A stretch of 38,739 nt of DNA from a virus. This document shows positions 29,093 through 34,403 of this stretch, one piece after another (the first letter of the stretch is position 1; the number at the start of each line of letters is the position of its first letter). Location: the IMG/VR virus record IMGVR_UViG_3300049855_000365, positions 1 through 38,739 of that record; one strand, 5' to 3'. The position numbers and the translations under genes are program-made. Below the pieces are notes generated by a model, which did not search any database, had not been told where the DNA came from, and saw only the letters and a list, made by a program, of their open reading frames with translations.

Positions 29093-29278
29093 ACAAGGCA
29101 GCCAGTGATCTTCTGGCCCTGATCCATCGTTGAACATCCACGGCCAGTCTGTTCCGTCTTCGCGCTGCTCGATTTGCTGGTGCGGCTTCATTTTTACTAC
29201 GCGGCGTGTCTGCATTTTCGTGCCTGCCAGCAATGCGCGGACCATCGGCCCGCTAAATAGAATGGGGCGTTCTTTCAT
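28655..29278 (-). CDS. ASCH-like phage protein, copy 2
   Basis: This 207-residue paralogue of the 26531-27151 product starts at ATG 29278, just after GGAGAGC and overlapping the reverse transcriptase stop as ATGA. It shares the MKERPILF start, MVRALLAGTKMQTRR and the entire C-terminal two thirds, but residues 29-60 differ (QQIEQREDGTDWPWMFNDG). Retention of both copies suggests different specificity in that variable segment, or a recent duplication. Confidence 0.8.
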   Translation of the reverse strand: MKERPILFSGPMVRALLAGTKMQTRRVVKMKPHQQIEQREDGTDWPWMFNDGSGPEDHWLPCPYGQPGDRLWVREAWAAPHTFDHIPPRMIPAESNFHYLADEGKGGLIGRPSIHMPRCASRILLEIFSVRVERLNDISEADARAEGIKQARFPLDYLWNADYPDRGCGSGGGPVNAYKSLWNEINGTGSWTANPWVWVIEFKRVTP

Positions 29279-30405
29279 GCTGCTCTCCGATATGTCTTGG
29301 TAATACTCTGATTGATCCACTGCCCGCGCTTCCGCAGTGCATTGGCGATCTGGGTGCGAACGTGGTGGCTGTGGGTGGCTTGGCGCATGAGGCCGAAATA
29401 GCTGTTGCCGGTTTCGAGAAGTTGATCGGCCGGCACGGTGGCGATGCGCTGGAGGGCGCTGGTGACCGTGCGGCGGCGGGTGGTGCGGTGCCAGGGGCGG
29501 ATCACCTGGCCGACGAAATCAATACCGCGATCAATGGGCTGCAGGATGGTCTTGCCATCATTCAGGCGGGCATGCAGCACGCGCGGCAGGAATTCGCGGA
29601 TGTTGGCGTGCGCGGCGTTCAGCCATTGGGCGGATTCGTGCAGTAGCACGAAGTCATCCACGTAGCGGATGTAGTGCCGGGCGCGCAGCTGGTGCTTGGC
29701 GTACTGGTCCAGTACGTCCAGATAGACGTTTGCGAAGAACTGTGACGACAGGTTGCCGATAGGCAGGCCGAGGTGTGCGGGCTGGTTGGTGAGGCGCTTG
29801 TGCGCAGGCACCAGGGCGAGCTTGGCCGGGTCGCCGCGCAGCTCGAAGTCCTGACGCGGATCGTGCCAGAGGATCTGGCGGGCAAGCGCGAGCCATGGCG
29901 CTTCGGTGATGCGGCTGGCCAGCAGCGCATCGAGCACGGTCTTGTCGATGCTGACGAAGAAGTTGGCCAGATCCAGCTTGAGGTAATAGCCAGGCAGGCT
30001 CCAGTTCTGTGTGAGGCTGCGCACCTTGGCGTCCAGCCGCTGGGCGGCGTAGAGCGTGCCACGGCCCGGAATGCAGGCGCAGCTATCTGCAATGAAGCTG
30101 GCGTGAATGCGCGGGGCGATGTGGTTGTACAGCAGGTGATGCACGATGCGGTCACGGAAGTCTGCCGCCCATACTTCGCGGGCCTTCGGGCGCGTGACGA
30201 CAAAGCAGACGGATCGGAGGGGCTGGTAGGTGCCGCCGATCAGGTCTTCGTGCAGGGCGATTAGGTTGTGCTCCAGACTCTCTTCGAATGCCAGCGCGCT
30301 GGCGCTGTTGCGCTTGGCGCGGCGGCAGTCGAAGTAGGCCTGAACGAGCGCTTCAAAAGAAAAGGCATGGCCCGCGCAAGCGGGGTCTTGATCTGCGGAC
30401 GGCAC
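29275..30405 (-). CDS. DGR reverse transcriptase
   Basis: This protein of about 376 residues copies the TR RNA into error-prone cDNA. Visible motifs are LKLDLANFFVSID (motif 3, catalytic Asp near residue 145), GLPIGNLSSQFFANVYL (motif 4, the DGR and group-II-like IGN-SSQ signature, near 213-229) and YIRYVDDFVLL (YVDD box near 248). A C-terminal thumb follows. The frame is open to 30975, but upstream parts overlap TR and avd. GTG 30405 is chosen because GAAGG lies eight bases before it; GTG 30411 is the alternative. Confidence 0.93.
   Translation of the reverse strand: MPSADQDPACAGHAFSFEALVQAYFDCRRAKRNSASALAFEESLEHNLIALHEDLIGGTYQPLRSVCFVVTRPKAREVWAADFRDRIVHHLLYNHIAPRIHASFIADSCACIPGRGTLYAAQRLDAKVRSLTQNWSLPGYYLKLDLANFFVSIDKTVLDALLASRITEAPWLALARQILWHDPRQDFELRGDPAKLALVPAHKRLTNQPAHLGLPIGNLSSQFFANVYLDVLDQYAKHQLRARHYIRYVDDFVLLHESAQWLNAAHANIREFLPRVLHARLNDGKTILQPIDRGIDFVGQVIRPWHRTTRRRTVTSALQRIATVPADQLLETGNSYFGLMRQATHSHHVRTQIANALRKRGQWINQSITKTYRRAA
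30371..30384 (-). other. Hairpin just after TR, inside RT gene start
   Basis: CCCGC pairs with GCGGG around four bases, a few bases past the end of the TR. It may stall reverse transcription or position the RNA for priming; this is inference. Confidence 0.5.
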
Positions 30406-30493
30406 GAACACGGCCTTCGTAATCCTTGTTGTTGTTGTTCTGGTTGCCATTGGCGAAGTTCTGGTTCCAGGCGTTGTTGGCCGAGTTCTGCGT
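30391..30493 (-). repeat. DGR template repeat (TR)
   Basis: This 103-base segment on the minus strand would translate as TQNSANNAWNQNFANGNQ followed by NNNNKDYEGRVRAVRR if read in the frame of the targets. It has ten AAC codons and one AAT in the 5' two thirds, and an invariant 3' end (GTGTTCGTGCCGTCCGCAGA) that acts like an initiation-of-mutagenic-homing element. It lies between avd and the reverse transcriptase, the standard position. Matching VRs are at 31082-31184 and 31643-31745. Confidence 0.95.
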
Positions 30494-30643
30494 TGTGTCG
30501 TGCTATCTACGTCGCCGCGCCGATTACTCAGTGCGGAAACTGCGCCAGACCATTCCTGCGAGCAGGCGGTATCTGTGATGCGCATGGCGGTGACGGCGGT
30601 GTGGCCCGTCAGCGGCTCGACCAGATTAAGAATCGCGCGGGCC

Positions 30644-31015
30644 TCAGCGCCGTGACGCTGAGGCAGCAGGCGAGTTTGCGGAGTGCTTGCGCCACCCATT
30701 TGCTTGCTTGCCGATCTGGTCTGTGAGCTGTATTGCGCCTGCGTATTGGCCGGCGCTGATGCAGCGCAGGTCTTTGCAGAGCCGCAATAGCAGCTCAACG
30801 ACTTGCACACGTTCCAATAGCTCATCAATGTGCGGCCTCTTGTCCGTCGCGCAATTGGCGCGAAAGATGAAGACGACAAGATCGATGCACTCATCATGGA
30901 TTCGCTTGCCGAGCGAATTTTTGTATTCGCGCGGCAGGTTTTTGATGAGTCCAGATGTGTTGGTGAGCAAGTCATAGGTCAGCTTGTAAATCGGTAATTG
31001 GGTGTGTAGGGCCAT
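30644..31015 (-). CDS. avd: Avd-like DGR accessory protein
   Basis: This 123-residue protein is strongly helical: HTQLPIYKLTYDLLTNTSGL, LPREYKNSLGKRIHDECIDL, LLERVQVVELLLRLCKDLRC and a fourth helix AGQYAGAIQLTDQIGKQANG. This is the four-helix-bundle pattern of Avd (and of 23S rRNA intervening-sequence proteins). Avd binds the reverse transcriptase and TR RNA. The start has no clear ribosome site, only a T-rich run from the upstream hairpin, so expression may be low or use a different start. The Lys/Arg-rich tail fits RNA binding. Confidence 0.9.
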   Translation of the reverse strand: MALHTQLPIYKLTYDLLTNTSGLIKNLPREYKNSLGKRIHDECIDLVVFIFRANCATDKRPHIDELLERVQVVELLLRLCKDLRCISAGQYAGAIQLTDQIGKQANGWRKHSANSPAASASRR

Positions 31016-31034
31016 GCTAAAAAAATCGCCGCGA

Positions 31035-31053
31035 AGCCGCGCTGCACGCGGCT
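31035..31053 (-). other. Hairpin downstream of VR1
   Basis: AGCCGCG pairs with CGCGGCT around CTGCA, about 30 bases past the VR1 end. The position and GC-rich stem match the hairpin/cruciform that aids target recognition in the Bordetella phage BPP-1 DGR. A second hairpin with similar flanks follows VR2. A T-run on the minus strand (CGATTTTTTT) follows, so it may also act as a weak terminator. Confidence 0.75.
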
Positions 31054-31067
31054 GAATTGTTGAATGA

Positions 31068-31571
31068 CTAAATAGCTAATAATCTGCGGACGGCACGAAC
31101 ACGGCCTTCGTAATCCTTGGTGACGTTGAACTGGTGGCCATTGCTGAAGACCTGGTACCAGGCGGTGTCGGCCGAGACCTGCGTGCTGGTCCAGTACCAG
31201 CCATCCTCAAACAGCTCGGGCACGGCGCACCACAGGGCACGCAGCTCGCGGCGACTGGGCAGGAAGTAGTCCTCGTGGCCTTCGATGCTCAGGCCGGCGC
31301 AGAACTCGGCGGCAGGGTGATCGGATGCGGAAGCGACCAGGGCCTCGGTATTGGCGGCGCCGTCGTATGCGCACTGGGCGCCGGGCTCTTGCTTTTCTTG
31401 AGCGCCCCATGCGAGCTTGGCGCCCGTGGAATATGCCGGCGATACGATCAGGTAGTAATCCGGCGCGCCATTGATGCCGCGAATCAGCGCGCCGAGCGTG
31501 CCGCCCTGGCCTTGCCAGGCTTCGCCCAGCTTGGGCGCGATGAGTAGGTCTTGCTTTGCTTTTGTTGCCAT
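31068..31571 (-). CDS. DGR target protein 1 (DUF1566/C-lectin-like)
   Basis: This 167-residue protein has a DUF1566-like domain. The motif YFLPSRRELRALWCAVPELF precedes the variable C-terminal region (EDGWYWTSTQVSADTAWYQV and onwards to RVRAVRRLLAI). The last 37 residues lie in VR1. N-terminal residues 1-60 are weakly similar to target 2 (GGTLGALIRGINGAPDYYLI). No signal peptide or transmembrane segment is seen. AGGGGG precedes the ATG. It probably displays the variable surface on a C-type lectin scaffold. Confidence 0.93.
   Translation of the reverse strand: MATKAKQDLLIAPKLGEAWQGQGGTLGALIRGINGAPDYYLIVSPAYSTGAKLAWGAQEKQEPGAQCAYDGAANTEALVASASDHPAAEFCAGLSIEGHEDYFLPSRRELRALWCAVPELFEDGWYWTSTQVSADTAWYQVFSNGHQFNVTKDYEGRVRAVRRLLAI
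31082..31184 (-). repeat. DGR variable region 1 (VR1)
   Basis: Aligned with the TR it has 13 differences at template adenines. The encoded residues at TR Asn codons become Val, Asp, Thr, Tyr, Val, His, Phe, Val and Thr. Two further differences are not at adenines: TR Ala codon GCC becomes Ser AGC. The 3' end is identical to the TR. Confidence 0.95.
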
Positions 31572-31594
31572 GACAACCCCCTGAAAAAATCGTG

Positions 31595-31614
31595 AAGCTG
31601 CGCGAGCGCAGCTT
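31595..31614 (-). other. Hairpin downstream of VR2
   Basis: AAGCTGCG pairs with CGCAGCTT around CGAG: an 8-bp stem with a four-base loop, the same size as the BPP-1 DGR hairpin. TTCAACAATTCA upstream and CGATTTTTT downstream (minus strand) are shared with the VR1 hairpin. The conserved flanks with different stem sequences argue for a structural role. Confidence 0.8.
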
Positions 31615-31625
31615 GAATTGTTGAA

Positions 31626-32279
31626 TTACTGAATGACTGACAATCTGCGGACGGCACGAACACGGCCTACGTAACCCTTGTCGTTGTAGTTCTGGGTGCC
31701 ACTGCTGAAGTCCTGGTCCCAGGCGTTGTTGGCCGAGTACTGCGTGCTGGACCAGTACCAGGCGTCCTCAAAGGCTTCCGCGCCGCCGGTGGCGAACGCA
31801 GGCGCGGTGGTTTGTGCCGGAAGCTCGGGGGTGTAGGGCCGCGTGGGCTCAATGGCGCTGAGGTTGATGCCGCTGCGCGCCCTGATCGTGTTGGTCTCGG
31901 CGGTGGGTTTCAGGTTGCGATAGATGACTTCCAGCTCGTCCTGCGCAGGGATGTACCAGTCTGCGCGGCCGGCGATGACCAGGGATTTCACCTGTTTGGC
32001 AATCGGGCTGCCGGCTGCGGCCATGGCATCGGTATTGGCGGCGCCATCGTCATAGCTGGTGGCGCTGATGCTTTCGTATTTACCCCACTCGCCAGTGGTT
32101 TCTCCCTCCGCTTTGGGGGCGACGATCAGGGCGACGATCTGGCCGGCACTGCGGATCAGGCCGGCGAAGAATCCGCCGTCCAGCGGTTCGCCGATGGCGG
32201 GTAGGTTGGTGATGGGGGTGGCGGCTGCTTTGCCGGAATCGGCGAAGGGGTGTGCGGATGCAGGGGCGGGTGCGTTCAT
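31626..32279 (-). CDS. DGR target protein 2 (DUF1566/C-lectin-like)
   Basis: This 217-residue protein has an Ala/Pro-rich N-terminus, a segment GGFFAGLIRSAGQIVALIVA similar to target 1, and a DUF1566 core with DDGAANTDAMAAAGS and DWYIPAQDELEVIYRNLKP. It ends in the VR2 region (WYWSSTQYSANNAWDQDFSS). CTGGAG precedes the ATG. No signal peptide or membrane segment is seen. It is encoded first of the DGR block. Confidence 0.93.
   Translation of the reverse strand: MNAPAPASAHPFADSGKAAATPITNLPAIGEPLDGGFFAGLIRSAGQIVALIVAPKAEGETTGEWGKYESISATSYDDGAANTDAMAAAGSPIAKQVKSLVIAGRADWYIPAQDELEVIYRNLKPTAETNTIRARSGINLSAIEPTRPYTPELPAQTTAPAFATGGAEAFEDAWYWSSTQYSANNAWDQDFSSGTQNYNDKGYVGRVRAVRRLSVIQ
31643..31745 (-). 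repeat. DGR variable region 2 (VR2)
   Basis: Aligned with the TR it has nine differences at template adenines, including Asn to Tyr, Asp, Ser and Thr changes, Asp to Gly and Glu to Val. The same two non-adenine differences as in VR1 (TR Ala GCC versus Ser AGC) are present. Outside these bases it matches the TR. Confidence 0.95.
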
Positions 32280-32309: not shown

Positions 32310-32492
32310 TTAAGATTCAGCGACATCGCAGATGTCGATAATTTGCTGAGCTACAGCGCGGGCCTGTGTGGTGTTCCAGTTCCCGAGCAGTACAAACAGC
32401 GATCCGTGCCGGGCTTCTAGAATGATTTGTGGGTCGATGCCGGGGTTTTCGATTCGGCATGTGGTGATGAATCCATCCAGACCCTTGACCAT
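32310..32492 (-). CDS. Small protein, unknown
   Basis: This 60-residue protein starts at ATG 32492 with AAGG upstream, continuing MVKGLDGFITTCRIENPGID. It ends in a helix (TTQARAVAQQIIDICDVAE). It sits immediately upstream of the DGR targets. No family recognised. Confidence 0.65.
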   Translation of the reverse strand: MVKGLDGFITTCRIENPGIDPQIILEARHGSLFVLLGNWNTTQARAVAQQIIDICDVAES

Positions 32493-33816: not shown

Positions 33817-34005
33817 ATGAAAAGCGCGGACGTTATTAAACGGCTTGAGTCAGAGGGCTGGAAGCACGTGGGCGGCAAGGGTGATCACGTGAAGTTCAAG
33901 CATGCAGACAAGCCTGGTCATGTGGTGGTGCCTCATCCGCGCAAAGATATGGCGATTGGCACGTTGCGCAATATTTACCGGCAAGCCGGTTGGGACTGGA
34001 GGTGA
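33817..34005 (+). CDS. hicA: HicA toxin
   Basis: This 62-residue protein starts MKSADVIKRLESEGWKHVGG, with KGDHVKFKHADKPGHVVVPH, which includes the catalytic-type His of HicA-fold mRNA interferases. It ends GTLRNIYRQAGWDWR, a typical HicA end. No ribosome site is seen upstream of the ATG. The stop overlaps the following ATG. It cleaves mRNA unless bound by HicB; here it probably stabilises the prophage or defends against other phages. Confidence 0.93.
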   Translation: MKSADVIKRLESEGWKHVGGKGDHVKFKHADKPGHVVVPHPRKDMAIGTLRNIYRQAGWDWR

Positions 34006-34010
34006 TGAGT

Positions 34011-34403
34011 ATGTTGTATCCGGGCTATGTGCATAAAGATCAAGACAGCGCCTATGGGCTAAGTTTCCCGGATTTTCCCGGTTGTTTTTCCGCTGCGGAT
34101 GATCTGGCTGATTTGCCGCGCATGGCGCAAGAGGCTGTGGAGGTGCATTTTGAGGGGGAGAGCTTTGCGCTTCCCGCACCCACTTCGCCTGAACATTGGG
34201 CGGGTGATGATCGTTTTGCGGGGGGGTACTGGATGCTGGTGGAGATTGATCTGGCGCGCGTCAGCGCAAAGCCTACCCGGCTGAATATTTCGCTGCCCGA
34301 GTATCTGGTGCGCCAGATCGATGTGTATGCCGAAGCGCATCACTTGAGCCGATCCGGGTTTTTGGCCCGTGCGGCTGAGGATGCGATGCGGGCACAGCGC
34401 TAG
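34011..34403 (+). CDS. hicB: HicB antitoxin
   Basis: This protein of about 130 residues starts MLYPGYVHKDQDSAYGLSFP, the standard HicB N-terminus, with ETC-type partial RNase H fold (PDFPGCFSAADDLADLPRMA). A ribbon-helix-helix DNA-binding domain follows (TRLNISLPEYLVRQIDVYAE, AHHLSRSGFLARAAEDAM). ATG 34011 lies six bases after GGAGGTG (33998-34004). ATG 34005 touches that site and is less likely. Confidence 0.93.
   Translation: MLYPGYVHKDQDSAYGLSFPDFPGCFSAADDLADLPRMAQEAVEVHFEGESFALPAPTSPEHWAGDDRFAGGYWMLVEIDLARVSAKPTRLNISLPEYLVRQIDVYAEAHHLSRSGFLARAAEDAMRAQR

What the first reader, a model, noticed from the sequence alone, without database searches (positions are those of the whole stretch)
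31035..31614. Matched hairpins with conserved flanks follow both VRs
Hairpins at 31035-31053 and 31595-31614 have different stem sequences but share TTCAACAATTCA before and CGATTTTTT after, in the direction of transcription. One has an 8-bp stem and four-base loop, the shape of the BPP-1 target hairpin. Covarying stems with conserved positions argue for selection on structure in homing, with possible extra terminator function.
Basis: partly seen in the sequence, partly recalled or inferred. Interest (0 to 1): 0.72.

Follow-up and report, generated by a model that had tools for sequence, protein, structure and literature searches.

The report
Octamer array and hairpin after DGR targets
Just beyond the hypervariable end of its target genes, this phage's mutation-targeting element carries a conserved run of 8-base repeats followed by a DNA hairpin; relatives nearly always keep the repeats but often lack the hairpin, so the repeats are a previously overlooked candidate for the signal that marks where mutagenesis is aimed.

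Summary
Both VRs of this diversity-generating retroelement (DGR) are followed, at the same offset (30 nt after GTCCGCAG), by GC-rich hairpins with different stems; 20,000 shuffles never reproduced this. Relatives show real covariation and a strong preference for C(GNA)G triloops, an unusually stable DNA hairpin. This supports a DNA structure at the position of the BPP-1 target hairpin. (1) The loops are not the BPP-1 type (GRNA, found in 49 of 49 hairpins of the VHML/BPP-1 group). (2) Most VRs in the window's viral clade have no hairpin yet are equally hypermutated, so it is at most an enhancer there. (3) The shared "TTCAACAATTCA" is part of something larger: an array of about three degenerate octamers (ATTYANYM) directly after the VR, outside the copied tract. 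It scores at least 20/24 in 94% of 266 viral and 84% of 161 genome/isolate VR tails, in at most 1.5% of TR tails, and in 0 of 57 VHML/BPP-1-group tails. I found no description of it in the searchable literature. Best reading: a DGR target site built as octamer array plus optional DNA hairpin. Existence is secure; function is inferred.

The parts
31615..31642 (-). octamer array after VR2: TGTCAGTC ATTCAGTA ATTCAACA ATTC
   Evidence: ATTYARYM pattern: 5 overlapping matches, all in the two tails; 0.21 expected; conserved in relatives
31595..31614 (-). hairpin after VR2, AAGCTGCG-CTCG-CGCAGCTT (8 bp; the loop ends are complementary, CNNG type)
   Evidence: CNNG loops in Pseudomonas relatives
31584..31592 (-). 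CGATTTTTT after hairpin VR2 (T-run 5 nt from the stem)
   Evidence: T-run accompanies GNA hairpins in relatives, 21/26 against 18/240
31054..31081 (-). octamer array after VR1: TATTAGCT ATTTAGTC ATTCAACA ATTC
31035..31053 (-). hairpin after VR1, AGCCGCG-TGCAG-CGCGGCT (7 bp, or 8 bp with T.G closing a GCA triloop)
31019..31028 (-). CGATTTTTTT after hairpin VR1, just before the avd start codon
31643..31745 (-). VR2 (3' end of target gene 2)
   Evidence: 11 mismatches to TR, 9 at TR adenines
31082..31184 (-). VR1 (3' end of target gene 1)
   Evidence: 15 mismatches to TR, 13 at TR adenines
31626..32279 (-). target gene 2, Lcl_C domain
   Evidence: Pfam PF07603 E=1.4e-11
31068..31571 (-). target gene 1, Lcl_C domain
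   Evidence: Pfam PF07603 E=3.8e-9
30644..31015 (-). avd (bAvd family)
   Evidence: Pfam PF22296 E=4.9e-14
30491..30675 (-). RT-15 RNA, spanning the 3' end of avd and the 5' edge of TR
   Evidence: Rfam RF03018, 161 bits; in 8/8 clade members tested
30391..30493 (-). TR (no octamer array after it)
29275..30975 (-). ORF of the DGR reverse transcriptase (true start not resolved; RT homology begins near 30366)

Best explanation
The stretch after each VR is the cis-acting target-site tail of an RT-15-type DGR. It has two parts. Part 1, nearly universal in the clade: about three degenerate octamers, (ATTYANYM)n, beginning where VR/TR identity ends, so homing neither copies nor erases them. Part 2, optional: a GC-rich inverted repeat right after the array, about 28 nt from the VR end, whose stem sequence drifts while pairing is kept and whose loop is usually C(GNA)G, or CNNG in Pseudomonas. 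Shown here: existence, position, conservation, covariation, absence from TR. Inferred: the AT-rich array marks or opens the VR 3' end so that the mutagenised cDNA can engage it, and the hairpin extrudes in single-stranded or supercoiled DNA and holds the site open, raising homing efficiency without being essential. In this phage both VRs carry both parts; its two hairpins have non-consensus loops.
For: Array: 94% of 266 viral VR tails score at least 20/24 against 0.7% of dinucleotide shuffles and 1.5% of TR tails; independent genome/isolate set 84% of 161 against 0 of 70 TR tails; 8-bp autocorrelation 0.467 against 0.28 shuffled and 0.21 after TR. VR/TR identity falls from 0.99 to chance at the array edge. 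Hairpin: 36 of 266 against 2.6 expected, starting 27-43 nt after the anchor; C(GNA)G stems of 6 bp or more: 40 in about 28 kb of VR tails against 43 in the rest of about 5 Mb of strands; CGNAG extends to at least 5 bp in 55/121 tail sites against 83/15,198 elsewhere; covariation. Same distance from the VR as the GRNA hairpins of the VHML/BPP-1 group. GNA and GNNA loops give unusually stable DNA mini-hairpins (PMC4686876); N4 promoter hairpins with 3-nt loops extrude at physiological supercoiling (PMC4496689). [quoted passage not shown] PMC12875486).
Against: No functional data for any DGR of this clade were found. Hairpin-less VRs carry as many A-directed changes as VRs with hairpins (13.2 against 13.0), so a homing role is not visible in mutation load. 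The window's own loops match neither the GNA nor the GRNA consensus strictly. The first octamer overlaps the stop codon, and stop coverage in extra frames is above expectation in avd-adjacent tails, so part of the array may serve translation.
Confidence: 0.6

Rival explanations
1. The hairpins with their T-runs are intrinsic terminators or attenuators between target gene and downstream gene, tuning avd/RT expression; they have no part in homing.
For: T-runs accompany GNA hairpins (21/26 against 18/240 tails). Some Pseudomonas relatives have canonical terminators after the upstream VR, GGCGC-ATCA-GCGCC-TTTTTT. The VR1 RNA has an alternative fold ending next to the U-run.
Against: In the window the T-run starts 5 and 9 nt after the stem. 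Among 34 unique VR-tail hairpins with a T-run, 25 have it 5-11 nt away, whereas 74 of 109 other terminator-like hairpins in these loci have it within 2 nt; 49 of 83 VR-tail hairpins have no T-run at all. GNA triloops stabilise DNA hairpins; GNA triloops are 8 of 34 in other terminator-like hairpins, some perhaps in undetected VR tails. A terminator before avd would work against expression of its own machinery.
Confidence: 0.2
2. The octamer array is a translation device: tandem stop codons in several frames, or an A/U-rich site that helps start the downstream gene (avd has no clear Shine-Dalgarno), not a DNA target signal.
For: Stops in all three frames in 33% of avd-adjacent arrays against 17% in column shuffles. 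TAACTGA direct repeats in Beggiatoaceae also give stops in all frames and precede start codons (PMC4679880).
Against: Only 9% of the other VR tails have three-frame stops although they keep the array. Those tails are followed by ordinary Shine-Dalgarno starts (sequences). The array goes with VRs rather than with any one downstream gene, and is absent from the VHML/BPP-1 group, whose VR genes also end in stop codons.
Confidence: 0.2
3. The hairpins are plain BPP-1-type target hairpins, and nothing else in the tail matters.
For: GC-rich 7-8 bp stems 28 nt after the VR, within the 4-34 bp range reported for phage DGRs (PMC3240598).
Against: Loops are not GRNA; in BPP-1, loop substitution or enlargement cut homing to near background (PMC3240598). 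No GRNA loop among 8 tetraloop hairpins in viral tails. Most viral clade members lack a hairpin but keep the array.
Confidence: 0.15

Closest known systems
BPP-1 / VHML-type DGR target hairpin (Guo et al. 2011, PMC3240598)
   Same: GC-rich inverted repeat downstream of VR and outside the copied tract; same distance as the VHML group; stem sequence free, pairing kept; gene order target-avd-TR-RT
   Different: Loop GNA or CNNG instead of GRNA (49/49 in that group); preceded by an octamer array absent there (0/57); hairpin optional in this clade; ncRNA is RT-15 rather than Rfam Phage_DGR
N4 virion RNA polymerase promoter hairpins (PMC4496689)
   Same: Small phage DNA hairpin with a 3-nt loop, shown to extrude at physiological supercoiling; variable stem bases allowed if pairing is kept
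   Different: They are promoters; no link to retrohoming
Group IIC intron targets at terminator hairpins (as discussed in PMC3240598)
   Same: A stem-loop next to the site used by a retroelement
   Different: Intron insertion; no octamer array
TAACTGA direct repeats of Beggiatoaceae (PMC4679880)
   Same: Short tandem repeats rich in stop codons at gene junctions
   Different: 7-mers, cellular genomes, proposed post-transcriptional role; the words retroelement and reverse transcriptase do not occur in that paper

Membership tests
Diversity-generating retroelement | RT, Avd, TR and VRs with mismatches at TR adenines | tested here: met
   VR1 13 of 15 and VR2 9 of 11 mismatches at TR adenines
BPP-1-type target hairpin (Guo 2011) | 7-10 bp GC-rich stem 4-34 bp after VR | tested here: met
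   7 and 8 bp stems, 28 nt after VR
BPP-1-type target hairpin (Guo 2011) | 4-nt GRNA loop in the sense strand | tested here: not met
   loops TGCAG and CTCG; the same search finds GRNA in 49/49 hairpins of the VHML/BPP-1 group
BPP-1-type target hairpin (Guo 2011) | stem sequence varies while pairing is kept | tested here: met
   two different stems in the window; covariation in relatives
BPP-1-type target hairpin (Guo 2011) | needed for efficient homing | not testable with these tools
   needs a homing assay; hairpin-less relatives are equally mutated
RT-15-type DGR clade (grouping defined here) | RT-15 RNA at the avd/TR junction | tested here: met
   window and 8/8 tested members; absent from 4 VHML/BPP-1-group records
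RT-15-type DGR clade (grouping defined here) | octamer array after each VR, none after TR | tested here: met
Intrinsic terminator | stem immediately followed by the U-run | tested here: not met
   T-run starts 5 and 9 nt after the stem; the VR1 RNA has an alternative fold nearer the U-run

The most novel reading that the evidence does not exclude
DGR target sites come in at least two cis-codes. The RT-15-type clade is addressed by a tandem octamer array directly 3' of VR, read by its RT/Avd/RNA complex or a host factor, and the hairpin known from BPP-1 is a dispensable booster that has changed its loop from GRNA to GNA/CNNG.
Probability: 0.4. Interest if true: 0.75.

Novelty: new variant of a known kind. 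Interest (0 to 1): 0.57.

Why it matters
How a DGR tells the VR it must rewrite from the TR it must spare is still incompletely understood. The array is present after VRs and absent after TRs, lies just outside the copied tract and is conserved across hundreds of phages and prophages, mostly of Beta- and Gammaproteobacteria, so it is a ready-made candidate for that signal and directly testable. If it works, it would also be a second addressing system for DGR-based directed evolution.

Tried and rejected
Hairpin as a universal feature of the clade: rejected. Spread of the window's stems as a mobile hairpin: no exact copy of the VR1 hairpin, and copies of the VR2 palindrome only in unrelated contexts resembling coding sequence. 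Array as a general three-frame stop device: not general. A trade-off in which hairpins replace weak arrays: only a weak association (odds ratio 2.1, p=0.05), and the 'weak' arrays keep the period with CTT for ATT, so not claimed. A whole-collection scan for four perfect octamers returned mostly simple-sequence repeats plus six DGR tails, so exact patterns do not measure specificity. A position matrix from the viral set recovers 150/161 held-out VR tails but also about 80 other sites per Mb scanned: the array alone is not unique in a genome. The large DGR survey of Wu et al. 2018 was not held, so earlier mention of the array there cannot be excluded.

Full report
OBSERVATION. On the minus strand the window carries a DGR in the order target gene 2 (VR2), target gene 1 (VR1), avd, RT-15 RNA, TR, RT. 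TR/VR mismatches fall at TR adenines (13/15 for VR1, 9/11 for VR2). After VR2 lies AAGCTGCG-CTCG-CGCAGCTT (31614-31595) and after VR1 AGCCGCG-TGCAG-CGCGGCT (31053-31035). Each stem starts 30 nt after the conserved GTCCGCAG. Shuffling never gave both at the same offset in 20,000 trials.

WHAT THE CONSERVED FLANK REALLY IS. I fetched about 160 viral loci by Avd and RT similarity and detected TR/VR pairs in all but one. Aligning 266 unique VR tails on GTCCGCAG showed a strict 8-bp pattern, ATT at +7, +15 and +23 with A and Y in between: (ATTYANYM)3. The array scores at least 20/24 in 94% of VR tails, 0.7% of dinucleotide shuffles and 1.5% of TR tails. In an independent set (80 GTDB loci, plus 6 phage isolates) it is found in 84% of 161 VR tails and 0 of 70 TR tails; many of the remaining tails keep the period with CTT for ATT. 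VR/TR identity drops from 0.99 to chance at the array's edge, so the array is outside the copied tract. The first unit contains the in-frame stop codon; the rest lie beyond it.

THE HAIRPIN IN RELATIVES. With a stem of at least 6 bp it occurs in 36 of 266 viral VR tails against 2.6 expected, starting 27-43 nt after the anchor. With a stem of at least 5 bp it occurs in 44 of 266 viral and 80 of 161 genome/isolate tails. On the RT tree, lineages with hairpins are scattered, and the window sits among relatives without. Of 33 triloop hairpins in viral tails 24 have a GNA loop, where shuffles give about 0.1. C(GNA)G hairpins with stems of at least 6 bp number 40 in about 28 kb of VR tails and 43 in the rest of about 5 Mb of strands. 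In a test that does not select on pairing, CGNAG extends to 5 or more contiguous pairs at 55 of 121 tail sites but 83 of 15,198 sites elsewhere, while control loops gave 0-4 each. Aligned stems covary: 60 cells changed on both sides against 30 in shuffles, score 0.467 against at most 0.10 when slid (these sequences were chosen with at least 4 pairs, so one search is the cleaner test). Pseudomonas members use a second loop class, CNNG (CTTG, CTCG, CCTG, CTAG); the window's VR2 loop CTCG is of this class, and VR1 is a GCA loop closed by a T.G pair.

CONTRAST GROUP. The same procedure on 84 loci of the VHML/BPP-1 group (RT about 31-36% identical to the window's in the phage records) finds a hairpin in 49 of 57 VR tails, all 49 with GRNA loops and none with the array. 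So the method sees BPP-1-type hairpins when they are there, and the two groups differ sharply. BPP-1 matches Rfam Phage_DGR (RF03022); all eight window-clade members tested match RT-15 instead.

MECHANISM. GNA and GNNA loops form unusually stable DNA hairpins (PMC4686876), and N4 shows that small phage hairpins with 3-nt loops extrude at physiological supercoiling (PMC4496689). BPP-1 work showed that the hairpin raises homing, that pairing rather than stem sequence matters and that some activity remains without it (PMC3240598); a 2026 reconstitution proposes that it keeps the target open while single-stranded (PMC12875486). By analogy I infer that the hairpin here is a homing enhancer. It cannot be essential in this clade: hairpin-less VRs carry 13.2 mismatches, 97% at TR adenines, against 13.0 and 97% with a hairpin. 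The feature that nearly all share is the array, which is AT-rich (72% in the first 30 nt against 43% in the next 30) and placed where cDNA must engage. That it marks or opens the site is inference, not shown.

TERMINATOR AND TRANSLATION READINGS. T-runs go with GNA hairpins (21/26 against 18/240) but start 5-11 nt from the stem in 25 of 34 cases, while 74 of 109 other terminator-like hairpins have them within 2 nt. Some Pseudomonas upstream VRs do carry a canonical terminator at this place, so termination may be a local addition. Stops in all three frames are enriched in avd-adjacent arrays (33% against 17%) but not in general (9% against 5%).

LIMITS. Sequences are related, so counts of tails are not independent events. 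Array scores use a consensus from the same viral set; the genome/isolate set is the independent check. Very near relatives of the window may have been withheld by the tools. One large DGR survey could not be read, so the claim that the array is undescribed is limited to the library searched.

Noticed in passing
30491-30675 (-): Rfam RT-15 RNA spans the avd 3' end and TR 5' edge and is found in 8/8 tested relatives but not in BPP-1/VHML-group records. It looks like the structured DGR RNA of this clade, perhaps the place where reverse transcription ends.
   Followed up: partly
30371-30384 (-): A short hairpin, CCCGC-TTGC-GCGGG, lies shortly after GTCCGCAG at the TR end. Hairpins after TR are not general in relatives (11/204 tails).
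   Followed up: partly
32321-32337: A C(GCA)G hairpin, CGACATC-GCA-GATGTCG, reads on the plus strand upstream of target gene 2. Role unknown.
   Followed up: no
33818-34403 (+): Two small plus-strand ORFs look from their sequence like a HicA/HicB toxin-antitoxin pair; not searched.
   Followed up: no
L163, L166, L227, L263 and other Pseudomonas loci: Upstream VRs are followed by GGCGC-loop-GCGCC-TTTTTT, a canonical-looking terminator, while the avd-adjacent VR has a CCGGCCG-CTTG-CGGCCGG type hairpin without a T-run: two different hairpin types in one DGR.
   Followed up: partly
L172-L209: Near-perfect tandem octamers of the same consensus (such as (ATTCAACC)n and (ATTTAATA)n) occur as simple-sequence arrays in unrelated viral contigs.
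   Followed up: no
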